This document shows, in pieces, positions 6,542 through 20,825 of a stretch of DNA of 64,000 bases (position 1 is the stretch's first letter; the number at the start of each line of letters is the position of its first letter). Location: contig NZ_BBXC01000010.1 in assembly GCF_001570525.1 (NCBI RefSeq), positions 124,001-188,000 on the forward strand, in the 5' to 3' direction. The notes under the pieces were generated by a model that saw nothing but the letters and a program-made list of their open reading frames with translations, was not told the DNA's origin and made no database searches. The translations under genes were made by a program, and so were the position numbers. Source of the DNA: Herbidospora sakaeratensis. Its GTDB lineage: Bacteria > Actinomycetota > Actinomycetes > Streptosporangiales > Streptosporangiaceae.

Positions 6542-7129
6542 CTAACGCCGGACGCGGTAACGCAGGTGGGTGACGCCGACGCCCTGGACCACTTTGACCG
6601 GTCCGTCGAACTGGACCGGCGCGACGCCGAGGTCGGCGAACAGCGGGGTGCCACCGCCGAGCAGCACCGGGACCAGTTCCACGCCGACCTCGTCGATCAG
6701 GCCGGCCTCCAGCGCCTGGCGGGCCATCTGGCCGCCGTTGACCACGACGTCCTTGTCGCCCGCGATCTCCCTGGCCTTCGCCACGGCCGCCTCGATGCCC
6801 TCGCTGACGAACACGAAGTTCGGCCGCTCCTCGGGCACGCGGTGCGTCAGCACGACCACCGGGACGCCCATCGGGTGGACGCCGCCCCACGCGTTTGTCA
6901 TGTCGTAGAGGTGGCGGCCGACGACCAGCGCGCCGGCGTTGCCCCAGTCGTCCTTCAGCAGGTCGGCGCTGACCTGCGACAGCCGCAGCGGCGGCACGTC
7001 GGGGCTGGCGCCGGGGATCTCGACGTCGCCGTTGCCGTACCACTGGAACAGCAGGTCGAAGCCGCTCTCGCCGGGGCCGGCGATGAAGCCGTCGAGGGAC
7101 ATCGTGCCGCCGGTGATGACCTTGCCCAT
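6542..7129 (-). CDS. dihydrofolate reductase family protein (RibD C-terminal domain)
   Basis: A 195-residue single-domain protein of the DHFR/RibD-C superfamily. It begins GKVITGGTMSLDGFIAGPG and has an NADPH-site stretch VVVNGGQMARQALEAGLIDE. The family includes riboflavin-pathway and uncharacterised reductases; the substrate cannot be told from the sequence. ATG 7129 follows AAGGAGA at good spacing. It sits directly upstream of the BlaI-like and M56 genes on the same strand, so it may be under BlaI control. Confidence 0.88.
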   Translation of the reverse strand: MGKVITGGTMSLDGFIAGPGESGFDLLFQWYGNGDVEIPGASPDVPPLRLSQVSADLLKDDWGNAGALVVGRHLYDMTNAWGGVHPMGVPVVVLTHRVPEERPNFVFVSEGIEAAVAKAREIAGDKDVVVNGGQMARQALEAGLIDEVGVELVPVLLGGGTPLFADLGVAPVQFDGPVKVVQGVGVTHLRYRVRR

Positions 7130-7283
7130 CTTTGGTGTCTCCTTCGGATTCTTGGTCTTCCGTCAACGCGTCGTCCGGGTTGCCGTGGTTTCGACATCGG
7201 GTCGCCAAAAAACTTTTATCCGGGCATATCGAGCCCCCGGCTGTGGGTTGCCACAGAGTGCGAGCGATTGGGGGATCGGGAGC

Positions 7284-9122
7284 ATGTGTGGAATCACCGG
7301 CTGGGTGGACTACGAGCGCGACCTGACGGGAGCCAGGGAGGTCGCGCAGGCCATGACCGACACGATGAGCTGCCGGGGGCCCGACGACGAAGGACTCTGG
7401 CTCTCTCCGCACGCGGCGATCGGGCATCGCCGCCTCGCCATCATCGACCTCGCCGGAGGACGGCAGCCGATGATCGCCGAGGCCGACGGGCGGGAGCTGG
7501 CGGTGCTCACCTACAGCGGTGAGGTCTACAACTTCCAGGAGCTCCGCGACGAACTGGTCTCCCGGGGGCACGCCTTCCGGACGTACAGCGACACCGAAGT
7601 CCTGCTGCACGCCTACCTGGAGTGGGGCGAGGACCTCGCCGACCACCTGAACGGCATGTTCGCCTTCGCCGTCTGGGACACCCGCGACGAGCAGCTGATC
7701 CTGGTCCGCGACCGGATGGGCATCAAGCCGCTCTACTACTACCCGACCCACGACGGGGTGCTGTTCGGCTCGGAGCCGAAGGCGATCCTGGCCAACCCGA
7801 TGGCCGAGCGGGTCGTGGACGCCGACGGGCTGCGCGAGATGCTCGCGTTCGTGAAGACGCCCGAGGTGGCGATCTTCAAGGGCATGTACGAGGTCCGCCC
7901 CGGCCAGATCGTCAAGATCCGGCGCGAGGGCATCACGAAGCGGCGCTACTGGCAGCTGACCGCCTACGAGCACCCCGACGACGTCGCGGCCACGGTCCTG
8001 AACGTGCGGGGGCTGCTCGACGACATCATCGCCCGCCAGCTGATCAGCGACGTGCCGCTGTGCACGCTGCTGTCGGGCGGGCTCGACTCCAGCGCCGTGA
8101 CCGCGCTGGCCGCGCACGACCTGAAGGCGCAGGGCCTGGGCAAGGTGCGGTCGTTCTCGGTCGACTTCCTCGGCTACACCGAGAACTTCAAGCCCGACGC
8201 CGCCCGGGCGACGCCCGACGGCCCCTACGCGCACGACCTGGTCAGGCACGTCGGCTCCGACCACACCGACATCGTGCTCGACTCGGCCGACCTGATCGAC
8301 CCGGCCGTCAGGGCGGCGGTGCTGCGCGCCCGCGACCTGCCGGTCGGCATGGGCGACATGGACACCTCGCTCTACCTGCTGTTCCGTGCGATCCGCAGCC
8401 ACTCGACGGTGGCCCTGTCGGGCGAGTCGGCCGACGAGGTGTTCGGCGGCTACCAGTGGTTCCACGACCCGGTGGCCGTGCACGCCGACACCTTCCCGTG
8501 GCTGGCCGTCGGCGACATCGTGGGCCACATGAACCTGGACCTGCTCGACCAGGACCTGCTGCGGCTGCTCGACATCCCCGGCTACCAGGCCGACAGCTAC
8601 CACGACTCGATGGCCGAGGTGCCGCGCCTCCCCGGCGAGAACGGGCTGCAGGCGCGCATGCGCGAGATCAGCTACTTCAACCTGACCCGGTTCGTGCAGA
8701 TGCTGCTCGACCGCAAGGACCGCATGAGCATGGCCGTCGGGCTGGAGGTCCGCGTGCCCTTCTGCGACCACCGTCTCGTCAACTACGTGTTCAACGCGCC
8801 GTGGGCGATGAAGACGTTCGACGGCCGGGAGAAGAGCCTGCTCCGCGCGGCCTGCGCGGACATCCTGCCCGACTCGATCCTGCGCCGGGTCAAGTCGCCC
8901 TACCCGTCGACCCAGGACCCGTCGTACGGCGTCGCGCTCCGCGACGCCGCGCGCGAGCTCCTGTCCGGCGACTACCTGCCGAGCCAGGAGGTCATGGACC
9001 TCGTCGACGCCCGCAAGATGGTCAGCCGGGCCGACGGCGAGCCGCTGCCGAGGCCGCCGCTGGAGCGGCTGCTCCAGCTCGACGCCTGGCTGAAGGACTA
9101 CGAGGTCAAGGTGAGCGTCTGA
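7284..9122 (+). CDS. asnB: asparagine synthase (glutamine-hydrolysing)
   Basis: A 612-residue class II glutamine amidotransferase. It makes asparagine, or amidates a related acid, from aspartate, ATP and glutamine in the cytoplasm. Cys2 (MCGITGW) is the N-terminal nucleophile exposed by Met removal, which fixes the start. The glutaminase domain runs to about residue 200 and the synthetase domain carries the PP-loop SGGLDSS near residue 263. The length is close to AsnB-type enzymes. It is divergent from the DHFR-like gene across a 154-bp region and overlaps the LPFTG gene by 17 bp at its 3' end. No secondary-metabolite genes flank it, so primary metabolism is likely. Confidence 0.93.
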   Translation: MCGITGWVDYERDLTGAREVAQAMTDTMSCRGPDDEGLWLSPHAAIGHRRLAIIDLAGGRQPMIAEADGRELAVLTYSGEVYNFQELRDELVSRGHAFRTYSDTEVLLHAYLEWGEDLADHLNGMFAFAVWDTRDEQLILVRDRMGIKPLYYYPTHDGVLFGSEPKAILANPMAERVVDADGLREMLAFVKTPEVAIFKGMYEVRPGQIVKIRREGITKRRYWQLTAYEHPDDVAATVLNVRGLLDDIIARQLISDVPLCTLLSGGLDSSAVTALAAHDLKAQGLGKVRSFSVDFLGYTENFKPDAARATPDGPYAHDLVRHVGSDHTDIVLDSADLIDPAVRAAVLRARDLPVGMGDMDTSLYLLFRAIRSHSTVALSGESADEVFGGYQWFHDPVAVHADTFPWLAVGDIVGHMNLDLLDQDLLRLLDIPGYQADSYHDSMAEVPRLPGENGLQARMREISYFNLTRFVQMLLDRKDRMSMAVGLEVRVPFCDHRLVNYVFNAPWAMKTFDGREKSLLRAACADILPDSILRRVKSPYPSTQDPSYGVALRDAARELLSGDYLPSQEVMDLVDARKMVSRADGEPLPRPPLERLLQLDAWLKDYEVKVSV

Positions 9123-9663
9123 ACCGGCGACGGGTCAGCACGATCAGCGCGACGCCCTCCAGCGACGCGACCGCGCCCGCGAGCGCGAGCACGAGGAGGG
9201 CGTCGCCGTTCATTCCGGTGAAGGGCAACTCCTCGGGTTTCGCATGAGTGACACCGGAATCGTGCTGGACGCCGGAATCGCGGTCCGCCGCCGAATCTCC
9301 GTGAACGCCGGAATCGCGGTTAACTGCTGAATCGCGATTAATGCCCGAGTTGTCTGAGTCGCCCTCGAAGTTCAGTCCGTCGACATTGCCGTGAATGCCG
9401 TCGATGCCGCCCTTATGGCCGTCGTCGACGTGATGGGTCACCGGTTTTCCATGGTGGCGGTCCGGCTCCTCGGCTGACGGGTCGACGGGGTCCACGGGGT
9501 CGGGGTCGACCGGGTCGACCGGGTCCACCGGGTCGACCGTTCCCTCCGGGGGAAGCACCCGGATCGAGACCCCCATGCCGCCCGGATCCTCCGCCGCCAG
9601 CGCGGCTGCCGGTGTCATGGCGGCGAACATCAGTCCCGCCAGCGCGGCGATGCTTTTTCTCAT
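9106..9663 (-). CDS. small LPFTG sortase-anchored surface protein
   Basis: A 185-residue secreted protein. The signal peptide is about 1-26. A run of VDP triplets occupies about residues 45-63, then a His/Asp/Gly-rich part, then degenerate six-residue repeats built on RDS/DSGV. The sorting signal is LPFTG, then a hydrophobic helix and the basic tail RRRFRR. ATG 9663 is preceded by GGGAG. Sortase should link it to peptidoglycan; no sortase gene is in the window. It lies next to, and divergent from, the lectin/DUF11 surface genes and plays the part that small LPxTG proteins play in Firmicutes csc clusters. Confidence 0.85.
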   Translation of the reverse strand: MRKSIAALAGLMFAAMTPAAALAAEDPGGMGVSIRVLPPEGTVDPVDPVDPVDPDPVDPVDPSAEEPDRHHGKPVTHHVDDGHKGGIDGIHGNVDGLNFEGDSDNSGINRDSAVNRDSGVHGDSAADRDSGVQHDSGVTHAKPEELPFTGMNGDALLVLALAGAVASLEGVALIVLTRRRFRRSP

Positions 9664-9858
9664 TTCTCCCCCGTATATCCCTGCCCTCCGGCCCATATAC
9701 CCAATTGGCGGAAGTAAGGCGCATCGGGGGAAGCTTTACGGAATATGACCCGCTGAAAACCATGGGTGGAGACTAGGAATCCACGGACGATCTTGAGCAG
9801 TCCTCTTGGCGGTCGATTGACTACCTTCTCGAATTGATCGCTATGGGGGGCATTGCGG
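9664..9858. other. divergent intergenic region of the surface locus
   Basis: These 195 bp separate the LPFTG gene from the surface operon and are clearly richer in A/T than the flanking genes. They must hold promoters for both directions. A TTGACT hexamer at 9817-9822 is a possible -35 box for the rightward operon, but no convincing -10 follows at standard spacing. No ORF or inverted repeat of note is present. Confidence 0.5.
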
Positions 9859-10773
9859 ATGGTCAATTCGGTTCGGGGTGGCACGGCGGGATTCCTCGTC
9901 GTGTTGTGTCTTTTCTTGACCCAAGGCACACCGGTTCGGGCGGCCGAACCGGAGCCCGCCTTCTCGATGCAGGTCACGCCGACCCGGTTGGTCGTGCCGG
10001 CCGGGACGTCCGAGCACCGGTTCGAGGTGAGCAACAAGGGCCGGGAGGCGTTCCAGGTCACCGTCGAGAGGTCCGACTTCGTCGCCGGTGAGTCGGGGGC
10101 GATGCGCTTCCAGCCCGGCGCGCCCTACGCGGCGGCGGCCTGGGCCTCGGTCGATCCGATCCAGCTGACGGTGCCGCCGGGGGAGACCCGTCCGGTGACG
10201 CTGCGCGTGGTCGTGCCGCAGACCCCCGAACCCGGCGACCACCAGTTCGCGGTCATCTTCAAGGTCCCGGCGGCCAAGACCAGCGCGAACATCCGGATCA
10301 ACCGGGGGATCGCCGCGCCGGTGTTCGTCACCGTGCCCGGCGCGATCGACCGGTCGGCGGAGATCGCCGACCTGCGGGCGCCCGGGTTCGTGCTCGGCGG
10401 GCCGGTGCCGATCACCGCGAAGGTCCGCAGCACCGGCACGGTGCACCGGGACTTCCGGGGGCCCGAGCGCCTCAAGGCGCGGGCCGGCGGGTCGGAGCTG
10501 CTGTTCCCCGACTTCACCGTCGTGCGCGGGGCCACCCGCGAGGTCGCGGCCACCTGGGACGCCCCGCTCGTCTGCTTCTGCGACGTGACCGTGGCGGTGC
10601 CCGGCGGCAACACCCGGACGGTGCAGGTGGTCGTCTTCCCGCTGCACCTGCTCGTCGTCCTGGTCGCCGTCGTGATGGGCGGCGCGCTGGTCTGGGTGCT
10701 CGTCCGGCACCGGTACCGGCGCCGGGTCGAGTCGGCCGCGCGTGAGCTGGCGGGGAGTGGCAGCCGTGTTTAA
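9859..10773 (+). CDS. membrane-anchored Ig-like surface protein (DUF916/WxIP-like)
   Basis: A 304-residue protein: signal peptide (about 1-28), two beta-rich Ig-like domains, one C-terminal membrane helix (about 256-280) and a basic tail RHRYRRR. The first domain begins FSMQVTPTRLVVPAGTSEHRFEVSNKG and includes RFQPGAPYAAAAWASVDPIQLTVPPGETRPV, the pattern of DUF916-type proteins that accompany WxL proteins in Firmicutes. ATG 9859 is preferred over TTG 9853 because GGGGGG lies 8 bp before it. Its stop overlaps the GTG of the giant lectin gene, so the two are coupled. It is probably the membrane receptor for the secreted cap-domain proteins; that is inference from architecture. Confidence 0.7.
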   Translation: MVNSVRGGTAGFLVVLCLFLTQGTPVRAAEPEPAFSMQVTPTRLVVPAGTSEHRFEVSNKGREAFQVTVERSDFVAGESGAMRFQPGAPYAAAAWASVDPIQLTVPPGETRPVTLRVVVPQTPEPGDHQFAVIFKVPAAKTSANIRINRGIAAPVFVTVPGAIDRSAEIADLRAPGFVLGGPVPITAKVRSTGTVHRDFRGPERLKARAGGSELLFPDFTVVRGATREVAATWDAPLVCFCDVTVAVPGGNTRTVQVVVFPLHLLVVLVAVVMGGALVWVLVRHRYRRRVESAARELAGSGSRV

Positions 10774-13700
10774 GCGGGTTCTCGCCGTCGTCCTCGCCGC
10801 CTCGGCCGTGCACGTGCCCGCGTCGGTCTCGCACGCCGCCGGGTCGACGCTCTTCGTGCAGACGTTCAAGAACAACACCATCGACCCCGCCTATCCGGTG
10901 ACGATCCCGGCGCTGCCGGTCGGCTCGACCGGCGCCAACGCCGCCTGCCTGTCGGCCGCCGGGAACCTGACCGGGACCGGCCTGAAGAGCTGCCTCACCT
11001 CGACCGACGCCAACGGCTCGGGCGTGCTGCGGCTGACCAGCGCGGTCACCAGCCAGCAGGGCGGCATCTTCGGCGCGACGGCGGTGCCGACCTCGCAGGG
11101 CCTCGACGTGACGTTCAACATGTACCAGTACGGCGGCGGCGGGGCCGACGGCGTGGCGTTCGTCGCCGCGGCCGTCGATCCGGCCAACCCGGTGCCGCCC
11201 GCCAACATCGGGCGGCCCGGCGGTTCGCTGGGCTATTCGCCGTTCTCGTCCGGGGTCGGGCTGGCCAACGCCTACCTGGGGTTCGGCTTCGACGCGTACG
11301 GCAACTTCAGCAACTCCTCCTACCAGGGCAGCGGGTGCACGAACCCGGCCTACATCTCCACCAGCGGGATCGTCCCGGGCCAGGTCGTGGTGCGCGGGCC
11401 CGGCGCCGGCACCGTCGGCTACTGCGCGATCAACAGCACGGCCACCTCGACGAGCTCGGCGGCGCTGCGGCTGCGCGGCACCACGCGGGCGGCCTCGGTG
11501 GTCCCGGTCGCCATCGCGATCAACCCGACGTCGAGCGCGCTGACCACCGCCGCCGGCTTGTCGGTCGCGGCGGGCAGCTACACGGTCCAGTTCACCCCGG
11601 TCGGCGGTTCGCCCCGCACGCTGTCGGGCCCGCTGCCGACCGTGTCGTCGAGCCTCTACCCGTCGTCGACGTGGACGACGGCCACCGGCATCCCCCGGCA
11701 GCTCGCGTTCGGCTGGGTCGCCTCGACGGGCGGCGTCACCGACTTCCACGAGATCGACAACGTCGTGGTCAACAGCCTCAACCCGGTGCCCGACCTGACC
11801 GTGACGCAGACGAGCTACAACGGGACCGCGCCGAAGCCGGGCGACCCGGTGACCTACACGGTCCGGCCGGTGGTGTCGGCCACGGGCGCCAACGAGACGC
11901 TGCCGATCTCGGTGACCGAGACGCTGCCGGCCGGCGTGGTGCCCGTGGGCGCGTTCGGCGCCGGCTGGGTCTGCGGCGCGCCGTCCGGGCAGAAGATCAC
12001 CTGTACGAACTCCAACACCCCCTTCGCCAGCGGCACCACCCTGCCGACGATCACCGTCGTCGGCATCGTCACCGGGAGTTCGGTGACGCCGTCGACCGTG
12101 CAGACCGGTTCGACCGTGACGGTCTCCTCCAACGACGGCAACCCGGGCATCGCGACGACCACCACGGCGGGCACCATCCCGGCGGCCCCGTCGGGGATCA
12201 CGTTGTCGACCACCAGCGGCACCATCGCGGGCGGCGGGAGCGTGACCGTCAGCGGCTCGAACCTGACCGGCGCGACCGCCATCGAGATCGGCACCACGGC
12301 CGAACAACAAGCGGGCACGCCGGTCGTGCTGCTGCCGTGCTCCAGCGTGATCACCACGAACTGCTTCGTCGCCAACGCCAACGGCACGCTGACGATCCCG
12401 TCGATGCCGTCGCGTTCGACGGCCGCCGCCGTGACCGTGACGGTGGTGACCCAGGGCGTGGCGGGATCGGCCGCCTACACCTACACCTCGGCCCCGGCCA
12501 CGCCCGCCGCGCCCACCGCGACGGCAGGCGCGACCAGCGCGACCGTGACCTGGACGGCACCGGCCGCGAACGGCAGCCCGATCACGGGCTACGTCGTCAC
12601 GCCCTACCTGAACGGCGTCGCGCAGACGCCGGTCTCCTACCCCTCGACGGCGACGACCCAGACGCTCACCGGGCTGACTGCCGGGGCCTCCTACACCTTC
12701 ACCGTCGCGGCGGTGAACGCCATCGGGACCGGCACGGCCGGTCCGCAGTCGAACACGGTGGTGCCCTACACCGTGCCGGGGCGGCCGACGATCACCTCGG
12801 CGACCGCCGGAGACCTGTCGGCCACGCTGACCTGGTCGCCACCGGCCTCGAACGGCGGCAGCGCGATCACCGGCTACGTCGTGACGCCCTATCTCAACGG
12901 GGTGGCGCAGACGCCGGTCTCCTACTCGTCCACGGCGACGACGCAGACGGTCACCGGGCTGACGGCGGGGGCGGCGTACACCTTCACGGTGACGGCCGTG
13001 AACGCGGCCGGTCCCGGCCTGCCCTCGACGCCGTCGGCGACCGTGACGCCGAACGCCAACCCGCAGCTCACCTTCGGGCCGCCGCCGGGCGGGCAGGTGA
13101 ACGTGGCCTACAACGTGCCGCTGACGATGACGGGCGGCACCGCGCCGATCACCTGGTCGATCAGCGCCGGGTCGTTGCCGCCGGGGGTGACGCTCAACCC
13201 GTCGACCGGCCTGCTGTCGGGCACCCCGACGACGGCCGGCACCTACAACTTCACGGTCAGGATCCTCGACGCGAGCGGGCAGAGCGACACCCGCGCGGCG
13301 ACGGTGACGATCGCGGCGGCCCCCGTGCTGACCGTTCCGCCGCCCCCGGCCGCGCAGGTCGCCGTGGCCTACAACCTGCCGCTGTCGGTCTCGGGCGGCA
13401 CCGCGCCCTACACCTATTCGCTCGCCTCGGGGGCACTGCCGCCGGGGCTGACGCTGAACAGCACGACCGGCCTCATCTCGGGCACCCCGACCACACAGGG
13501 TGCCTACGCCTTCGCGGTCAAGGTCACCGACACGAACGGGCAGAGCGACACCAAGTCGGCGACGATCAACGTCGGGGCGGGGCCGCTCGTCATCACCAAG
13601 ACGGCCAACCAGTCGGCGGCGACGCCGGGGTCGACGCTCTCGTACACGATCACGGTGGCGAACACCGGCCCGTCGGCCTTCAGCGGGGTCACCCTGAGCG

Positions 13701-16700
13701 ACCCGCTGGCCGACGTGCTCGACGACGCCACCTACAACGGCGACCTGGCCGCCTCGCTGGGCAGCGCCTCGCTGAGCGGGCAGAACGTGACCTGGACCGG
13801 CAACCTGGCCGCCGGGGCGACCGCGACGATCACCTATTCGGTGACCGTGCGGACCGGCGGGAACGGCATCCTGACCGACACGGTCGTCTCGCCGACCTCG
13901 GGCACCAACTGCCCGGCGTCGAGCGCCGACAGCCGGTGCCGGTCGACGGTCACGCTGCAGGCGCTCTCCATCGGCAAGACCGCCGACACGGCCAACCCCA
14001 CGCCGGGGGCGACCGTGACCTACACGGTCACGGTCACCAACACCGGGAAGACGGCGTACTCCCCGGCCACGTTCTCCGACGCGCTCGCCGGAGTGCTCGA
14101 CGACGCGACGTACAACAACGACGCGACGGCGACCTCGGGCACCGTGACCTACGGTGCTCCGACGTTGTCGTGGTCGGGCAACCTGTCCGCGGGCGCGTCG
14201 GCCACCATCACCTACTCGGTGACGGTCCGCGACCCCGACCCCGGCGACCGCGCGCTGACCAACACGGTGACCTCGGCCAGCCCCGGGAACAACTGCCCGT
14301 GCACGGTCACCGTCACGACGCTGGTGCCGAGGCTGACCGTCACCACCGCCACCGACGTGTCGAGCACGACGCCCACCGGGGTGGTGCGCTACACGGTGAC
14401 CGCCACCAACACCGGGCAGACGACCTACCCGGCGGCCGACTTCACGCTGGCGCTGGCGGGCGACGCGACCTACGACAACGACGCCACCGCCACCTCCGGC
14501 AACCTGACGCTGAACCCGAACGGGACGATCACCTGGACCGGCCCGCTCGCGCCCGGCCAGTCGGTGACCGCGACCGCGTCGGTCACCGTCAACAACCCCG
14601 CCTCGGGCACCCTGACCAGCAACGTCACCTCGACGACGGCCGGCCTGAACTGCGTGTCGTGTACGACCTCCGTGCCGATCCGGCAACCCAGGCTCACCCT
14701 GACGAAGACGGCCGGTTCGCCGACCACCACGCCCGGCGGCACGGTCACCTACACGATCACCGCCGCCAACACCGGCCAGACCGCCTACCAGGGGGCCACC
14801 TTCACCGACTCGCTGGCGGGCGTGCTCCCCGACGCCGTCTACAACGGCGACGCCTCGGCCACCTCCGGCGCGGTCGCCTACAACACGCCGGTGTTGTCGT
14901 GGACGGGCGACCTCGCGGTGGGGGCCTCGGTGACGGTGACGTACACGGTGACCGTGAAGAACCCCGACCCGGGCGACCGGCTCATGTACAACACGGTCGT
15001 GTCGCCGGCCTTGGGCAGCACCTGCCCGCAGGGGTCGTCGAACCCGAGCTGCACCGCCGTGGTGAACGTGCTGCTCCCGGGCCTGACGATCACCCGGCAG
15101 GCCGACCGGGCCAGCGCCGCCCAGGGCGAGGTGATCAACTACACGATCACCGCCCAGAACACCGGCCAGACGCCCTACACCGGCGCGAGCCTGACCGACC
15201 AGCTGGCCCAGCTGCTCGACGACGCCGTCTACAACGGCGACGCCGCCGCGAGCTCCGGCACGGTGACCTACACCGCGCCGAACCTGACCTGGACGGGCGA
15301 CCTCGCCGTCGGCGCGACCGCGACGATCACCTATTCGGCGACCGTCCGCAACCCCGACCCCGGCGACGGGCTGATCACCGGCACGGTCGTGTCGACGGTC
15401 CCCGGATCGACCTGCGCGAGCGGGTGCTCGTCGACGGTCCGGTTGTCACGGCTCGCCCTGAGCCAGGCGTTCACCGAGACGAGCACCACCCCGGGTTCGG
15501 TCATCCACCTCAGCGCGACGTTCGCCAACACCGGCCAGACGCCCTACACGGGCCTCACCGTGTCGGCGTCCAGCGCCGACGTGATCGACGACGCCACCCC
15601 GAACGGCGACCAGGTCGCCACCTCGGGCAACCTGGTCCTGGGCCCGACCGGCATCAACTGGACGGGCGACATCCCCGTCGGCGGCACGGTGACCGTCACC
15701 GGCACGCTGACCGTGAAGAACCCCGACACCGGCAACAAGATCATCCGCGGCACGCTCGTCGCCGACGCGCCGGGCAGCTCCTGCCCGACCGGCGGGAGCG
15801 ACCCGGCCTGCACCGCGCGGATCGACGTGCTGATCCCGGCCCTGACGATCACCACCGTGCCCGACACCACCACGCAGGAGCCGGGAGGCGTCGTCCACTA
15901 CACGACGACGATCACCAACAGCGGCCAGACGCCCTACACGGGGATCAGCGTGACCGACGACCTGAGCGGTCTGCTCGACGACGCCGTCTACAACGCCGAC
16001 GCGTCGGCCACCGCGGGCACGGCCGTCTTCGCCACGCCGCAGCTGACCTGGACGGGCGACCTGGCCGTGGGCGCGTCGGCGGTCGTCACCTACAGCGTGA
16101 CCGTGCGCGACCCCGACCCGGGCGACAAGCAGCTCATCAACGCGGTCACCTCGGCCGCGCCGGGCAGCACGTGCGTCTCGGCCTGCGTGTCGCGGGTGGT
16201 CGTGCTGACTCCGGCGCTGACCATGGCGACCTCGGCCGACCGGCAGACCGCTATCCCGGGCGACACCGTCACCTTCACCACGACGATCACCAACACCGGC
16301 CAGACGCCCTACACGGGCGCCACGGCGCTCACCAGCCTGTCGGCCCTGCTCGACGACGCCGTGTACGGCGCCGACGCCGTCGCCACGTCGGGGTCGGTGG
16401 CCTACACCGCGCCGAACCTGACCTGGACGGGCGACCTCGCCGTCGGCGCCAGTACGACGATCACCTTCACGGCCGTGGTGAACAACCCCGACCTGGGCGA
16501 CAAACGGCTGACCGCGGTGACCACCTCGGCCGCCAGGGGCGCCAACTGCCCGGCCGGATCGGCCGACACGCCGTGCGCGGTCACGGTGGTGGTCACCGAC
16601 GTGACCGACCTGACCTTCACCAAGACGGCCGACCCGTCGTCGGTGGTCCGGGGCGGGGTCGTGACGTACACGGTCACCGTGGCCAACTCCGCCGCCACGA

Positions 16701-19642
16701 CCTACGTGGGCGCGGCCTTCACCGATCCGCTGGCGGGGGTGCTGGACGACGCCTCGTACAACGGCGACCTGGCCGCGACGTCGGGCACGGCCGCCTTCAC
16801 CTCGCCGAACGTGACCTGGTCGGGCAACGTGCCCGCCGGGGGCATGGTGACCGTCACCTACTCGGTGACGGTGAACCCGGCGCGCGGCTCCGGCGACGAC
16901 CTGCTCACCGGCACGCTCGTCTCGCCCTCGCCCGGCGGCAACTGCCCGGCGGGCGGGACCGACCCACGCTGCTCGGCCACGGTCACCGTGTCGGAGCTGG
17001 AGATCGCCGTGTCGTCCAGCGCCACCAGCGTCAAGCCGGGGCAGACGGTCCAGCTGACCGCCGTGTTCACGAACACCGGGCAGACGCCCTACCACGGGAT
17101 CCGCGTCGCGATCCCGGCCGGCGACCTCGTCGACGACGCCACGCCGACCGGCGACACGACGCTCACCTCGGGCACGTTGTCGGTCGAGGGGCTCGACCTC
17201 ATCTGGACGGGCGACCTCCCCGTCGGCGGCAGCGTCACGGTGGCGTCGCCGTTCACGGCCAACGCGCCGCCGACCGGCAACCGGCGGATCGCGACCCGGC
17301 TGACGTCGGCCGCGCCCGGCTCGAACTGCCCGGCGGGCGGGACCGATCCGGCCTGCGCGCTCGACGTGCCCGTGCTGGTGCCGCAGCTGACCATCGCCAA
17401 GACCGCCGACCGCGCGACGGCCGAGCCGGGCGACACGGTGGCGTACACGATCACGATCGCGAACACCGGCGAGACGCCCTACACGGGGATCGGCGTCACC
17501 GACCCGCTGGCGGGCGCGCTCGACGACGCCGTCTACAACGCGGACGCCGCCGCCACGACCGGCTCGGTGGTCTTCGCCGACCCGGCGCTGACCTGGACCG
17601 GCGACCTGGCGGTCGGGGCCACGGCGACGGTGACCTACACGATGACCGTGCGGTCGCCCGACCCGGGCGACAAGATCATGGCCAACGCGGTGACGTCGGA
17701 CGCCGAAGGGTTGTCGTGCGGGGCGTGCACCAGCAACGTCCAGGTGCTCACCCCGGCGCTGACCATCGTGAAGTCGGCGAGCCCGGCCTCGACGGTCCCG
17801 GGCGGGACGGTGACCTACACGGTCACGGTCACCAACTCCGGCCAGACGAACCACCCGGCGGCCACCTTCACCGACGCGCTGGCCGGCGTGCTCGACGACG
17901 CCGTCTACAACGGCGACGGCAGCGCCACCAGGGGGAGCGTCGGCTTCGCGGCCGGCGCGCTCACCTGGACGGGCGCGCTGACCCCCGGCCAGTCGGCGAC
18001 GGTCACCTACTCGGTCACCGTGCGGAACCCCGACCCGGGCGACCGCATGTTGTCGAGCCGGATCACCTCCCCGACGACCGGCGGCAACTGCGGGACCGAC
18101 CCGCGGTGCGAGACCGACGTGCCGGTGGCGGTGTTCACCGTCGTCACCGCCACCGACCGCACGGTCGCGATGCCGGGAGACGTCGTGCGCTACACGCTGA
18201 CGGCGACCAACAACGGGCAGACCACCTTCTCGCCGGCCGACTTCACCCTGTCGCTGGCCGGCGCGCTGGCGAACGCCGAGTACAACAACGACGCCATGGT
18301 CAGCAGCGGCACCCTGACCTTCAACCTCGACGGCTCGGTCACCTGGAACGGCCGCCTGGCCCCCGGTGAGTCGGTCACCGCGACCGCCTCGATCACGGTG
18401 ATCGACCCCGGCGGCGACGGGGGCACGCTGACCAGCGACGTCACTTCCACGACCCCGGGCCTCGACTGCCAGGCGTGCACGACCACAGTCACCGTGCTCA
18501 TCCCCGAGCTGACCCTGACCACGGTCGCCGACCGGCAGACCGCGACCCCGGGCGACGTCGTGACCTACACGATCACCGCCGCGAACACCGGCGAGGCGCC
18601 CTACCAGGGCGCGACCTGGAGCACGTCGCTGGTCGGCCTGCTCGGCGACGCGGTCTACGACGGCGACGCCACGGCGACCTCGGGCACGGTGACCTACACC
18701 GAGCCGCAGTTGTCGTGGACGGGCGACCTGGCCGTCGGCGCGGTCGCCGTGGTCACCTTCTCGGTGCGGATCAAGGACCCCGATCCGGGCGACGGCCACC
18801 TGGTCCAGCAGGTGGTGTCGCCGACGCGCGGCGCGACCTGCCCGGGCGGCCCGGCGTGCTCGACGACCGTGTGGGTGCTGACGCCCCGGCTCACGATCAC
18901 CAAGCAGGCCGACGTGGCGAGCATCGTGGCCGGCGGCATCGTGAACTACACGGTGACGGTGGCCAACACGGGCCAGACGCCGTACACGGGCGCGACCTAC
19001 ACCGACCCCGTCGGCACGGCGATCTACGGCGGCGACGCCTGGGCCTCCGCGGGCTTCGTGGCTCCCATCAACAACGAGCTGATCTGGACGGGCGACCTGG
19101 CGGAGGGCGCCAGCGCGACCGTGACCTACTCGGTGCGCGTCGACCCGGCCGCCGGGCACGGCACCCTGGCCACCACGATCACCTCACCCACCCGAGGTTC
19201 CAACTGCGCCGTGGGATCGGCCGACCAGCGCTGCTCGACGAGCATCGCCGTGATCGCCCAGAGCATCGCCGTGGCCGACCTGACCAGGAGCTTCACCCTG
19301 ACAGGCCCGCCTGACACCACCCAGCGCGGCGACGGCGTCGTGACGCTGAACGTCATCACCAACAGCCCGACCGGCTACACGGTGACCGTACGCTCGTCGG
19401 CGCCCGCGCTGACCTCGCCGGTGACCGGCGCCTCGATCCCGATCTCCGCGCTGAGGGTGCGGTCGCCGGAGACCGCCGGCTTCCAGCCGCTGTCGACGAC
19501 GACGCCGATCGTGGTGCACCGGCAGCCGGGGCCGTCGGCGCAAATCGGGGATTCGCTCGCGAATGATTATGAGGTCGATATTCCTTTTGTCCCGACCGGC
19601 AACTATTCAGTGACCCTCGACTACATTGCCAGCACATCGTGA
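10766..19642 (+). CDS. giant secreted L-type lectin / Fn3 / DUF11-repeat surface protein
   Basis: A 2,958-residue protein. Signal peptide about 1-26; L-type lectin-like head about 28-340 with GGADGVAFV and YLGFGFDAYGN and a closing FGWVASTGG segment; a divergent DUF11-like domain about 343-470; an IPT/TIG-like domain about 475-572; two near-identical Fn3 domains about 575-765; two putative-Ig (He_PIG) domains about 766-938; fifteen DUF11 repeats of about 125 residues to about 2830; and a C-terminal cap of about 130 residues. GTG 10766 is chosen because GGGGAG lies 8 bp upstream; it overlaps the previous stop. The protein has no membrane helix or LPxTG, so retention at the surface must depend on a partner. 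It probably binds glycans at the tip of a long stalk. Confidence 0.88.
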   Translation: MFKRVLAVVLAASAVHVPASVSHAAGSTLFVQTFKNNTIDPAYPVTIPALPVGSTGANAACLSAAGNLTGTGLKSCLTSTDANGSGVLRLTSAVTSQQGGIFGATAVPTSQGLDVTFNMYQYGGGGADGVAFVAAAVDPANPVPPANIGRPGGSLGYSPFSSGVGLANAYLGFGFDAYGNFSNSSYQGSGCTNPAYISTSGIVPGQVVVRGPGAGTVGYCAINSTATSTSSAALRLRGTTRAASVVPVAIAINPTSSALTTAAGLSVAAGSYTVQFTPVGGSPRTLSGPLPTVSSSLYPSSTWTTATGIPRQLAFGWVASTGGVTDFHEIDNVVVNSLNPVPDLTVTQTSYNGTAPKPGDPVTYTVRPVVSATGANETLPISVTETLPAGVVPVGAFGAGWVCGAPSGQKITCTNSNTPFASGTTLPTITVVGIVTGSSVTPSTVQTGSTVTVSSNDGNPGIATTTTAGTIPAAPSGITLSTTSGTIAGGGSVTVSGSNLTGATAIEIGTTAEQQAGTPVVLLPCSSVITTNCFVANANGTLTIPSMPSRSTAAAVTVTVVTQGVAGSAAYTYTSAPATPAAPTATAGATSATVTWTAPAANGSPITGYVVTPYLNGVAQTPVSYPSTATTQTLTGLTAGASYTFTVAAVNAIGTGTAGPQSNTVVPYTVPGRPTITSATAGDLSATLTWSPPASNGGSAITGYVVTPYLNGVAQTPVSYSSTATTQTVTGLTAGAAYTFTVTAVNAAGPGLPSTPSATVTPNANPQLTFGPPPGGQVNVAYNVPLTMTGGTAPITWSISAGSLPPGVTLNPSTGLLSGTPTTAGTYNFTVRILDASGQSDTRAATVTIAAAPVLTVPPPPAAQVAVAYNLPLSVSGGTAPYTYSLASGALPPGLTLNSTTGLISGTPTTQGAYAFAVKVTDTNGQSDTKSATINVGAGPLVITKTANQSAATPGSTLSYTITVANTGPSAFSGVTLSDPLADVLDDATYNGDLAASLGSASLSGQNVTWTGNLAAGATATITYSVTVRTGGNGILTDTVVSPTSGTNCPASSADSRCRSTVTLQALSIGKTADTANPTPGATVTYTVTVTNTGKTAYSPATFSDALAGVLDDATYNNDATATSGTVTYGAPTLSWSGNLSAGASATITYSVTVRDPDPGDRALTNTVTSASPGNNCPCTVTVTTLVPRLTVTTATDVSSTTPTGVVRYTVTATNTGQTTYPAADFTLALAGDATYDNDATATSGNLTLNPNGTITWTGPLAPGQSVTATASVTVNNPASGTLTSNVTSTTAGLNCVSCTTSVPIRQPRLTLTKTAGSPTTTPGGTVTYTITAANTGQTAYQGATFTDSLAGVLPDAVYNGDASATSGAVAYNTPVLSWTGDLAVGASVTVTYTVTVKNPDPGDRLMYNTVVSPALGSTCPQGSSNPSCTAVVNVLLPGLTITRQADRASAAQGEVINYTITAQNTGQTPYTGASLTDQLAQLLDDAVYNGDAAASSGTVTYTAPNLTWTGDLAVGATATITYSATVRNPDPGDGLITGTVVSTVPGSTCASGCSSTVRLSRLALSQAFTETSTTPGSVIHLSATFANTGQTPYTGLTVSASSADVIDDATPNGDQVATSGNLVLGPTGINWTGDIPVGGTVTVTGTLTVKNPDTGNKIIRGTLVADAPGSSCPTGGSDPACTARIDVLIPALTITTVPDTTTQEPGGVVHYTTTITNSGQTPYTGISVTDDLSGLLDDAVYNADASATAGTAVFATPQLTWTGDLAVGASAVVTYSVTVRDPDPGDKQLINAVTSAAPGSTCVSACVSRVVVLTPALTMATSADRQTAIPGDTVTFTTTITNTGQTPYTGATALTSLSALLDDAVYGADAVATSGSVAYTAPNLTWTGDLAVGASTTITFTAVVNNPDLGDKRLTAVTTSAARGANCPAGSADTPCAVTVVVTDVTDLTFTKTADPSSVVRGGVVTYTVTVANSAATTYVGAAFTDPLAGVLDDASYNGDLAATSGTAAFTSPNVTWSGNVPAGGMVTVTYSVTVNPARGSGDDLLTGTLVSPSPGGNCPAGGTDPRCSATVTVSELEIAVSSSATSVKPGQTVQLTAVFTNTGQTPYHGIRVAIPAGDLVDDATPTGDTTLTSGTLSVEGLDLIWTGDLPVGGSVTVASPFTANAPPTGNRRIATRLTSAAPGSNCPAGGTDPACALDVPVLVPQLTIAKTADRATAEPGDTVAYTITIANTGETPYTGIGVTDPLAGALDDAVYNADAAATTGSVVFADPALTWTGDLAVGATATVTYTMTVRSPDPGDKIMANAVTSDAEGLSCGACTSNVQVLTPALTIVKSASPASTVPGGTVTYTVTVTNSGQTNHPAATFTDALAGVLDDAVYNGDGSATRGSVGFAAGALTWTGALTPGQSATVTYSVTVRNPDPGDRMLSSRITSPTTGGNCGTDPRCETDVPVAVFTVVTATDRTVAMPGDVVRYTLTATNNGQTTFSPADFTLSLAGALANAEYNNDAMVSSGTLTFNLDGSVTWNGRLAPGESVTATASITVIDPGGDGGTLTSDVTSTTPGLDCQACTTTVTVLIPELTLTTVADRQTATPGDVVTYTITAANTGEAPYQGATWSTSLVGLLGDAVYDGDATATSGTVTYTEPQLSWTGDLAVGAVAVVTFSVRIKDPDPGDGHLVQQVVSPTRGATCPGGPACSTTVWVLTPRLTITKQADVASIVAGGIVNYTVTVANTGQTPYTGATYTDPVGTAIYGGDAWASAGFVAPINNELIWTGDLAEGASATVTYSVRVDPAAGHGTLATTITSPTRGSNCAVGSADQRCSTSIAVIAQSIAVADLTRSFTLTGPPDTTQRGDGVVTLNVITNSPTGYTVTVRSSAPALTSPVTGASIPISALRVRSPETAGFQPLSTTTPIVVHRQPGPSAQIGDSLANDYEVDIPFVPTGNYSVTLDYIASTS
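12490..13065 (+). repeat. tandem duplicated Fn3 domains in the giant surface protein
   Basis: Two consecutive fibronectin type III domains share the stretch GYVVTPYLNGVAQTPVSY and then TTQT-TGLTAGA-YTFTV with very few changes. They are much closer to each other than are neighbouring DUF11 repeats. This points to a recent in-frame duplication of about 285 bp. Confidence 0.8.
13585..19250 (+). repeat. fifteen tandem DUF11 repeats
   Basis: Protein-level repeat with a period of about 125 residues (about 375 bp). Each unit follows the pattern: L-T-ITK-AD start, PG-TVTYT-T-NTGQTPY, LAG-LDDAVYNGDA, LTWTGDLAVGA, and a closing C-x(1-9)-C pair. DNA identity between units is moderate, so the array is old rather than freshly expanded. 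DUF11 units usually build stiff extended stalks on bacterial surfaces. Confidence 0.88.
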
Positions 19643-19703
19643 GTTTAACTACGGGAAATCGCGGTGATCATGGCGTCGAGGTTAATTGAAAGGGATGGCA
19701 CAA

Positions 19704-20213
19704 ATGCCTGACATCAGAATCGCGTGCGCGGCTCTCGCCTGCCTGGCGGGCGTGCTGCACGCCGCGCCCGCGGCCGCCGACAGCGCCACCGGCAACACCG
19801 AGGCGATCGTCGTGGTCACCGACCAGATCACGCTCACCGAGCTGACCCCGTCGTTCACGCTGACCGGCGCGCCGGGCGCGGTCGTGACCACCGCTTCGCC
19901 GGTGACCATGCGCGTGACCACGAACAACTTCGCCGGTTACACCGTCACGGTGCAGCCGACGACGCCCAACCTGCTGCCCTCGATCGCCGGCAGCACCGAC
20001 GTCATCCCGGCGTCGCTGCTCCAGGTCAGCGGCCCGGCCCAGGCGGGCACCTTCACCTCGCTGAGTGCCGGGACGCCGGTCGTGGTCGACACCAAGGCGT
20101 CGGCCTCGGCGCCCACGGGAGACATCATCGCGAACAACTACCGCATCACCATTCCGTTCGTCCGCCCCGACACCTACCGGGGCACGCTGAATTACATCGC
20201 CACCACGCTGTAA
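19704..20213 (+). CDS. small secreted protein homologous to the giant protein's C-terminal cap
   Basis: A 169-residue protein: signal peptide about 1-24, then one beta-rich domain. Segments SFTLTG, GYTVTV, IP-S-L-V, a PVVV strand, GD-AN-Y---IPFV and the final TL-YIATT match the last 130 residues of the giant protein in order. ATG 19704 is preferred because AAAGGG lies about 9 bp before it; ATG 19695 abuts the site. In Firmicutes csc clusters a short and a long protein likewise share a C-terminal domain (WxL). Here no W-x-L motif is seen, so this is either a remote relative or an independent family. Confidence 0.8.
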   Translation: MPDIRIACAALACLAGVLHAAPAAADSATGNTEAIVVVTDQITLTELTPSFTLTGAPGAVVTTASPVTMRVTTNNFAGYTVTVQPTTPNLLPSIAGSTDVIPASLLQVSGPAQAGTFTSLSAGTPVVVDTKASASAPTGDIIANNYRITIPFVRPDTYRGTLNYIATTL

Positions 20214-20225
20214 ATGCCGGAGAAT

Positions 20226-20252
20226 GGCCGGCGGAATATTCGTCCGCCGGCC
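20226..20252 (+). terminator. perfect 10-bp hairpin between two surface genes
   Basis: Arms GGCCGGCGGA (20226-20235) and TCCGCCGGCC (20243-20252) around a 7-nt loop, 13 bp after the small cap-protein stop and directly before the ribosome binding site GGGGGGA of the next gene. There is no T-run after it. It may act as a partial terminator or as an mRNA 3'-end stabiliser that sets protein ratios within the operon. Confidence 0.55.
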
Positions 20253-20264
20253 TCTGGGGGGACC

Positions 20265-20825
20265 ATGGCGTTTTGGAGAAAAGTCGCGGCGATAATCGCC
20301 GTGTCGTTGGCGGTGGCGCCGGCCGCGCACGCGAAACCGAAGACCCAGCTGACCATCGCGGTCGAGGGGGGCGGCGACGCGGTCAGGCAGGGACAGCGGC
20401 TGACGTACACGACGACGGTGACCAACACCGGCGCCGCCGACGCCAGGTCCCTCGACATCAGCCAGACCGTCGACCCCGGCCTGACGCTGGTCTCGTCGTC
20501 GCCGCCGGGGAAGGCGGCCGACGGCCGGGTGCGCTGGACGCACCCGCTGCGGGCCGGCGAGACCGTGACGTTCAGCGTGACCATGGACGTGAAGCGGCTG
20601 GCCCCCGGGCTGAAGCGCCTCGCGGTGGTGTCGTGCGCGGCCCGCGCGGACGAGGCGCGGCCGCTGGTGTGCGCGACCGACTCGGCCCCCGTGACCGCCC
20701 CGGCTCCGGTGGCGATGAAGACCCAGGGGTCGTCGGTGCCGGTGGCGTGGGGGGCGGGCGCGGCCCTGCTGCTCGTGCTGCTCGGGCTCGTGTGGCGGCG
20801 CCGGACGGACGCGACTAGCCGCTGA
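20265..20825 (+). CDS. DUF11-domain surface protein with C-terminal membrane anchor
   Basis: A 186-residue protein: signal peptide about 1-22, one DUF11-like domain (about 27-140) with GQRLTYTTTVTNTG and RAGETVTFSVTMDV, a linker, and a C-terminal membrane helix (about 160-178) ending in WRRR. Two cysteines near residues 125 and 138 mirror the cysteine pair of the giant's repeats. ATG 20265 follows a GGGGGGA site. It may be a membrane docking partner for the DUF11 stalk. Its 3' end overlaps the convergent TetR gene by 11 bp. Confidence 0.8.
   Translation: MAFWRKVAAIIAVSLAVAPAAHAKPKTQLTIAVEGGGDAVRQGQRLTYTTTVTNTGAADARSLDISQTVDPGLTLVSSSPPGKAADGRVRWTHPLRAGETVTFSVTMDVKRLAPGLKRLAVVSCAARADEARPLVCATDSAPVTAPAPVAMKTQGSSVPVAWGAGAALLLVLLGLVWRRRTDATSR

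What the first reader, a model, noticed from the sequence alone, without database searches (positions are those of the whole stretch)
9106..20825. Actinobacterial counterpart of Firmicutes csc/WxL surface clusters, built on a giant lectin
Five adjacent genes combine a small LPFTG wall protein, a DUF916-like protein with a C-terminal membrane helix, a giant secreted protein with an L-type lectin head and a C-terminal cap, a small secreted protein made only of that cap, and a DUF11 protein with a membrane anchor. Firmicutes csc clusters (CscA with DUF916, CscB/CscC with a shared WxL domain, CscD small LPxTG) have the same parts list. Here the cap lacks a W-x-L motif. I infer a modular, non-covalent display system in which the cap docks to the DUF916-like protein and/or wall. 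The parallel is seen in architecture; homology is not proven.
Basis: partly seen in the sequence, partly recalled or inferred. Interest (0 to 1): 0.78.

Follow-up and report, generated by a model that had tools for sequence, protein, structure and literature searches.

The report
Actinobacterial relative of WxL surface clusters
A soil actinomycete carries a five-gene cluster that appears to hold a giant sugar-binding protein on the cell by docking a shared end-domain onto a membrane protein, much as the WxL systems of lactic acid bacteria do, but with a strongly diverged docking domain.

Summary
In detail: five secreted or anchored proteins lie at 9106-20825 (genus Herbidospora). A: small LPFTG wall protein. 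B: two Ig-like domains plus C-terminal membrane helix. C: ~2,958-residue lectin/DUF11 giant ending in a ~145-residue cap. D: the cap alone. E: DUF11 plus membrane helix. B is a DUF916 (WxLIP) homologue: relatives of B pass the Pfam cut-off, and a profile of B with them matches solved Enterococcus WxLIP (9i25_C, E 1.3e-5). The cap is probably a very divergent WxL-type domain (profile match reached by 0 of 300 shuffles; C-terminal; beside a DUF916-type protein), but both signature tryptophans are invariant tyrosines, so it fails the defining motif. Small cap and B form the core: B directly follows the small cap at 30 of 30 fetched loci without a giant between them. E accompanies the giant (28 of 28 loci searched); LPFTG accompanies only the window-type gene order (15 of 18). 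Best explanation: B captures caps by strand complementation and so displays the giant lectin non-covalently; binding was not tested. A bolder reading, a PapD-like donor-strand fibre with the giant as lectin tip, is open but weakly supported.

The parts
9106..9663 (-). A: small LPFTG wall protein (185 aa), CscD-like by architecture, divergent from B
   Evidence: sequence; an LPFTG gene lies within 3 kb of B at 15 of 18 loci with the window-type order, 0 of 12 loci with other giant-bearing orders, 0 of 11 loci without a giant; 7 sortase matches in the genome
9664..9858 (.). divergent intergenic region between A and B (presumed promoters; not analysed)
   Evidence: sequence; inference
9859..10773 (+). 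B: DUF916/WxLIP-related protein, two Ig-like domains + C-terminal membrane helix (304 aa)
10766..10773 (+). 8-nt overlap of C start and B stop (RTG-NN-stop), suggesting translational coupling
   Evidence: seen at 16 of 16 junctions printed (9, 7); not seen in L200, L201, L202, L205
10766..19642 (+). C: giant secreted protein (~2,958 aa): L-type lectin head, 2 fn3, 2 He_PIG, ~15 DUF11/DUF7927 repeats, C-terminal cap
19214..19639 (+). cap domain of C (C-terminal)
19695..20213 (+). D: small secreted protein consisting of signal peptide + cap domain
19776..19826 (+). N-terminal extension of the D cap: alternating hydrophobics, low confidence in the monomer model; candidate beta strand completed by or donated to a partner
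   Evidence: inference
20265..20825 (+). E: one DUF11 domain + C-terminal membrane helix
   Evidence: an E homologue lies near the giant at 28 of 28 distinct giant loci searched (20, 8) and at none of the giant-free loci searched in those calls

Best explanation
This is a cell-surface display cluster, distantly homologous to the WxL/WxLIP (csc) clusters of Bacillota. B is a membrane-tethered DUF916-type protein (shown: homology and helix). The cap is the docking domain shared by a large and a small secreted protein (shown: shared domain, at the C-terminus in the loci aligned). B holds caps by supplying or completing a strand of an incomplete beta sandwich, as predicted for WxL-WxLIP (inferred; a PDB entry, 9i25, holds both a WxL chain and a WxLIP chain). 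The giant's lectin head is thereby held outside on a rod of ~15 Ig-like repeats, for non-covalent attachment to glycans (inferred). The small cap protein is the constant partner of B and may regulate, spread or space the giant (inferred). E accompanies the giant as a second membrane-anchored DUF11 protein, and in one gene order an LPFTG protein adds a sortase-linked wall element (shown: co-occurrence; roles inferred).
For: B: P0002 matches G113/G068 proteins at E 2.6e-11 and 4.3e-10; the G068 protein and three others pass the PF06030 cut-off. A 37-row profile (25 B-family rows + 12 DUF916-like relatives) hits solved EfmWxLIP1 (9i25_C, E 1.3e-5). The 25 B rows alone against six Firmicutes WxLIP: P 2.6e-5, 0 of 200 shuffles. 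Cap: against 22 WxL-type domains local score 23.5, 0 of 300 block shuffles reach it (max 22.2); global P 2e-4, full length, Tyr55 and Tyr140 aligned to the two Trp. Linkage: small cap directly followed by B in 11 of 11 distinct loci, 13 of 13 and 6 of 6 further distinct loci; ten of the 29 loci were traced to their genomes and all ten have a B match, one only in fragments. B-C 8-nt overlap: 16 of 16 junctions printed. Lectin head; CscC proteins can carry ConA-like lectins (PMC1534035, passages). WxL cluster = one WxLIP + small + large WxL (PMC10599100).
Against: No complex was predicted or measured. No cap among 26 matches Pfam WxL, the W-x-L and D-x-R-G motifs are absent, cap-WxL profile probability is low (22% global, 7.5% local), and against the seven Firmicutes domains alone P is only 0.019. 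In global mode 1 of 60 shuffles exceeded the observed score (an unexplained outlier of 132). 9i25 does not appear among the 50 rows of the structure comparison. In Streptosporangium-label genomes four giants (L154-L157) have no intact B beside them, and two B genes (L059, L061) have no small cap beside them. B-family members themselves stay below the PF06030 cut-off (L058, L118, L125 and B). PF11797 (DUF3324) was not among the matches shown for B relatives (25 of 39 families shown).
Confidence: 0.62

Rival explanations
1. Donor-strand fibre: B is a membrane-bound PapD-like chaperone; small cap proteins polymerise by inserting their N-terminal strand into the next cap; the giant is the acceptor-only lectin tip, as FimH is in type 1 pili.
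Confidence: 0.15
2. The cap binds peptidoglycan (or another wall polymer) directly and B is only an accessory; anchoring does not depend on B.
For: WxL domains are reported to bind peptidoglycan (PMC5817068, passages); four Streptosporangium-label giants are not next to an intact B.
Against: Small-cap/B adjacency at 30 of 30 fetched loci across distant actinobacteria, and a B match in all ten cap genomes tested, suggest that B is needed.
Confidence: 0.15
3. The cap is an unrelated Ig-like C-terminal domain; the likeness to WxL clusters is convergence around a shared DUF916-type partner.
For: No Pfam WxL match; motif absent; low profile probability.
Against: Co-linear profile match above shuffles; same position, size class and partner; other actinobacterial DUF916-type neighbours carry recognisable WxL-like domains.
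Confidence: 0.2

Closest known systems
csc / WxL-WxLIP gene clusters of Lactobacillales and Bacillales (CscA-D)
   Same: DUF916-type protein with C-terminal membrane helix; small and large proteins sharing a C-terminal domain; lectin-type N-terminus in some large proteins; small LPxTG protein nearby in one gene order
   Different: docking domain lacks both W-x-L and D-x-R-G motifs (invariant Tyr instead) and is not matched by Pfam WxL; giant of ~3,000 aa with ~15 DUF11 repeats; extra DUF11-membrane protein E; second domain of B not shown to be DUF3324
Actinobacterial WxL-like + DUF916 pairs (e.g. L078-L080, L082, L084-L086, L088, the last in the same genome)
   Different: their domains keep a W at the first motif (GW or PW) and some carry HtaA or phosphoesterase domains; B family and cap are a separate branch
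PapD-type chaperone / donor-strand pilins (type 1, Csu)
   Same: Ig-like fold of cap model, PapD-like N-terminal stretch of B, lectin domain + C-terminal pilin-like domain in the adhesin
   Different: no sequence match of cap to pilins, no usher looked for, membrane-anchored partner
TasA/TapA fibres of Bacillus (search listing with starts of abstracts only)
   Same: strand-complementing secreted proteins in a Gram-positive
   Different: no sequence relation was tested here

Membership tests
WxL/csc cluster | DUF916 (PF06030) domain in the membrane protein | tested here: met
   B itself is below the Pfam cut-off (11.3 bits), but homologous by profile: PDB WxLIP E 1.3e-5 with a profile that includes relatives; 25 B rows alone P 2.6e-5, 0 of 200 shuffles
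WxL/csc cluster | DUF3324 second domain | tested here: inconclusive
   PF11797 not among the 25 of 39 families shown; profile alignment to WxLIP ends near the start of domain 2
WxL/csc cluster | C-terminal membrane helix on the DUF916 protein | tested here: met
   hydropathy peak at residue 266 of the 306-aa ORF
WxL/csc cluster | two W-x-L motifs in the docking domain | tested here: not met
   invariant Tyr55 (GYxV) and Tyr140 in all rows of A1 (26) and A6 (20)
WxL/csc cluster | D-x-R-G before the first motif (PMC1534035, passage) | tested here: not met
   TTNN-type sequence there
WxL/csc cluster | docking domain homologous to Pfam WxL (PF13731) | tested here: inconclusive
   0 of 26 caps match, own genome 0; profile-profile score above all 300 shuffles but low probability
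WxL/csc cluster | small domain-only protein and large multidomain protein beside one DUF916 protein | tested here: met
   several Streptosporangium-label loci lack the large protein
WxL/csc cluster | small LPxTG protein (CscD) in the cluster | tested here: met
   present in the window and at 15 of 18 loci of its gene order, but at 0 of 12 loci with other giant-bearing orders; 185 aa against 90-140 for CscD
WxL/csc cluster | docking domain binds peptidoglycan and the DUF916 protein | not testable with these tools
   needs a complex model or binding assay (prediction switched off)
PapD-type chaperone / donor-strand pilin | chaperone N-domain homologous to PapD_N | tested here: inconclusive
   Pfam PapD_N E 0.055; profile P 0.0014, 0 of 200 shuffles, but P 0.03 for DUF916 relatives and Firmicutes WxLIP
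PapD-type chaperone / donor-strand pilin | subunit homologous to fimbrial pilins | tested here: inconclusive
PapD-type chaperone / donor-strand pilin | outer-membrane usher | not tested
   none looked for; the organism is presumed monoderm (recalled)

The most novel reading that the evidence does not exclude
Actinobacteria have a donor-strand surface system in which a membrane-anchored PapD-like/DUF916 protein assembles small cap proteins into fibres tipped by a ~3,000-residue lectin. This would link the WxL/WxLIP systems of monoderms with the chaperone-pilin principle of diderms through one ancestral strand-complementing pair.
Probability: 0.15. Interest if true: 0.85.

Novelty: new variant of a known kind. 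Interest (0 to 1): 0.56.

Why it matters
WxL/WxLIP display is described as almost entirely a Lactobacillales/Bacillales trait (PMC10599100, parts 1-2 read; over 91% of 938 WxL sequences in Firmicutes in PMC9772566, one passage). A diverged cap-DUF916 pair across Actinomycetota, with an invariant Tyr-Tyr signature instead of Trp-Trp, suggests an older and wider docking principle. It supplies diverse natural variants to test how DUF916 proteins hold their partners, proposes a display route for giant actinomycete lectins, and makes a possible evolutionary tie to PapD-type strand complementation testable.

Tried and rejected
Pfam on 26 caps: no convincing family (best E 0.0041, DUF7223, 3 members). 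PDB by sequence with the cap profile: only chance-level hits. NCBIfam: nothing for B or D. Cap against K-12 pilins: P 0.19; cap against B: P 0.5; cap against a DUF11 control: P 0.12, but that control held a single repeat because my motif found few, so it is weak. A paper on TLP-1 was sought and not found: 0 occurrences in the 12 papers listed. Not listed in the 50 VIA rows: WxL of 9i25; this excludes nothing. One global-mode hhalign shuffle gave score 132, above the observed 23.3; I did not explain it and rely on local mode, where 0 of 60 and 0 of 300 reach the observed score. Loci dropped from the adjacency count: L180 (contig end), L181, L194, L195, L126 (fragments), L196 and L199 (weak cap match), L153 (two small caps, then B cut by the contig end), and loci where the giant stands between B and small cap; L058=L116, L060=L112, L111=L212, L122=L207 were counted once. 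L117 reads B in two frames. Giant ends L184-L187, L189 and L192 were not searched for E. Prior literature: WxL + donor strand 1 paper, listing only; WxL domain + Actinobacteria 7 papers, one read as passages; DUF916 + actinomycete 0; PapD + DUF916 0; WxL + Streptomyces + surface 16 papers, 12 listed, one of them read as passages. So I claim only that these searches showed no description of this cluster.
Full report
What is there. Five genes at 9106-20825 encode secreted or surface-anchored proteins. A (minus strand) is a 185-residue LPFTG protein. B, C, D and E run on the plus strand. C starts at GTG 10766, inside the end of B. This 8-nt overlap (RTG-NN-stop) was seen at 16 of 16 junctions printed: 9 (genus labels g1, g28, g53, g73) and 7 in more distant genera. 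C has an L-type lectin head (PF18483, E 5.9e-8; 8.1e-10 in the L056 homologue; 4 of 5 heads scanned match, all below the curated cut-off), fn3, He_PIG and about 15 DUF11/DUF7927 repeats, and a C-terminal cap. D is the cap with a signal peptide. The two caps match at 44% identity, E 7.4e-22. The nearest named genomes are Herbidospora.

Conservation. D was found in 7 of 60 genomes, exactly the seven of the genus, own genome included. A pattern scan of a collection of 84,980 species genomes gave 29 loci, among them Herbidospora, Sphaerisporangium, Acrocarpospora, Streptosporangium, Nonomuraea, Actinomadura, Kribbella, Microlunatus, Actinokineospora and an Acidimicrobiaceae MAG. The cluster is therefore patchy but wide.

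Core pair. Where no giant stands between them, a small cap gene is directly followed by a B gene: 11 of 11 distinct loci (L058, L060, L111, L115, L117-L120, L122, L123, L125; B reads in two frames in L117), 13 of 13 (L168, L170-L176, L179, L191, L193, L197, L198) and 6 of 6 further distinct loci (L206, L208-L211, L213). Ten of the 29 loci were traced to their genomes; all ten have a B match, one (L126's) only in fragments. Dropped loci are listed in Tried and rejected. G061, among the genomes drawn for the family sample but not listed with a B match there, carries two small caps followed by a B fragment cut by the contig end.

Gene orders and accessories. Three orders were seen. (1) LPFTG / B-giant-small cap-E, as in the window: Herbidospora, Acrocarpospora, Sphaerisporangium, Nonomuraea, one Actinomadura and one Actinoallomurus MAG. 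(2) Small cap-B-giant: L115, L117-L120, L123, L125, and with other spacing or strand in another family of the class (L200, L201, L202, L205). (3) Small cap-B without a giant (L058, L060, L111, L122, L206, L208-L211, L213), in genomes labelled as Streptosporangium (by contig identity of L058 and L116) or, for L213, g53. An LPFTG gene lies within 3 kb of B at 15 of 18 loci of order 1 (not L053, L158; L054's is farther off), 0 of 12 other giant-bearing loci (L115, L117-L120, L123, L125, L134, L200-L202, L205) and 0 of 11 loci without a giant (L058, L060, L061, L111, L122, L206, L208-L211, L213). An E homologue lies near the giant at 28 of 28 distinct giant loci searched (20; L154-L157, L200-L202, L205) and was not found at the giant-free loci searched in those calls. 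Related genomes are not independent, so no probability is given. Exceptions to B linkage: Streptosporangium-label giants L154-L157 lie apart from an intact B, and L059 and L061 have B without an adjacent small cap.

B is a DUF916 relative. Single-sequence Pfam gives only E 0.35, and B-family members L058, L118 and L125 also stay below the cut-off. But P0002 finds proteins at E 2.6e-11 and 4.3e-10 (50 of 150 genomes of the family have a match at E 0.001), and four relatives pass the PF06030 cut-off (42.9, 42.4, 42.5 and 31.3 bits against 27.3). A profile of 25 B-family rows plus 12 DUF916-like relatives hits the solved Enterococcus WxLIP chains 9i25_C and 9i1y_A at E 1.3e-5 and 1.5e-5. The 25 B rows alone against six Firmicutes WxLIP proteins give P 2.6e-5, with 0 of 200 block shuffles reaching the score. 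The second Ig-like domain could not be assigned to DUF3324.

The cap is probably a divergent WxL-type domain. The comparison set was 7 Firmicutes domains from DUF916 loci on plasmids (3 of them annotated WxL) and 15 actinobacterial WxL-like domains (4 from Pfam WxL matches, 11 from neighbours of DUF916-type genes). Against all 22 the comparison is co-linear over the whole domain in global mode (P 2e-4) and scores 23.5 locally (P 0.0047); 0 of 300 block shuffles reach this (max 22.2). Against the Firmicutes set alone P is 0.019, against the actinobacterial set 0.009 local and 0.0037 global. As a yardstick, the two sets match each other at P 4e-8. In the alignment the two signature Trp fall on Tyr55 and Tyr140, invariant in 26 and in 20 diverse caps. 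One Firmicutes small protein next to a DUF916 protein (L149:4207-4788, annotated hypothetical) also has GYTI and ends GTYSGTIDYNIS. Against this: no Pfam match, low hhalign probability (22% at best), and one unexplained shuffle outlier in global mode. I therefore do not file the cap as a WxL domain; the system works like a WxL cluster and is most likely related to it. Pfam WxL itself occurs in 12 of 197 genomes of the class over the cut-off, not in the own genome.

How it probably works. The Protein Science paper (parts 1 and 2 of 4 read, and passages) describes WxL clusters as one DUF916/DUF3324 membrane protein plus a small and a large WxL protein, and predicts that a WxLIP hairpin strand completes the WxL sandwich. 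The PDB now holds entry 9i25 with a WxL chain and a WxLIP chain. The AlphaFold model of D (mean pLDDT 89.4) is an all-beta domain whose first residues have low confidence (1-3 and 8-12 below 50). In 28 small caps the N-terminal stretch alternates hydrophobic and mostly polar residues (positions 10, 12, 14); the 19 large caps alternate one residue out of that register (11, 13, 15), where the stretch joins the last DUF11 repeat (many rows are close relatives). The simplest reading is that B completes or is completed by the cap and so anchors both D and the giant, with the lectin head projected by the repeat rod. Function beyond this (adhesion to polysaccharide, hypha or spore surface) is inference.

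Novelty. By the searches named in Tried and rejected I found no description of this cluster; the WxL literature seen places WxL almost wholly in Bacillota. I rate it a new variant of a known kind.

Noticed in passing
L088:6263-9731 (own genome, G000:C10 about 453 kb): A second DUF916-membrane protein (PF06030 over cut-off) beside a purple-acid-phosphatase-like protein with a WxL-like C-terminus; a further DUF916 match over cut-off lies at G000:C11:186448-186726.
   Followed up: partly
L078-L080: Genus label g61 of the same family has two proteins with GW-x-L type C-terminal domains (one with an HtaA domain, PF04213 E 6.5e-49) followed by a DUF916-membrane protein.
   Followed up: partly
L198:1390-3195: A distant pair from another lineage of the phylum: 187-aa cap-like protein with a VNVNVNV N-terminus followed by a DUF916-type membrane protein; suggests an even wider family.
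   Followed up: no
L154-L157: Streptosporangium-label genomes carry cap-bearing giants of about 3,900 aa (796 aa open frame in L157), near ABC-transporter-like genes and an E homologue, without an intact adjacent B.
   Followed up: partly
window 9859-10773, second Ig domain of B: A conserved C-x-C (PLxCxC) in most of the B family, absent from the other DUF916 relatives in A3.
   Followed up: no
window 9106-9122: The LPFTG gene overlaps the 3' end of a convergent asparagine synthase-like gene (6939-9122) by 17 nt.
   Followed up: no
L082, L084, L085: DUF916 + WxL-like pairs preceded by a ~256-270 aa secreted protein with a hydrophobic C-terminus; possibly the Ang-2-type neighbours mentioned with DUF916 in PMC12537917; not tested.
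   Followed up: no
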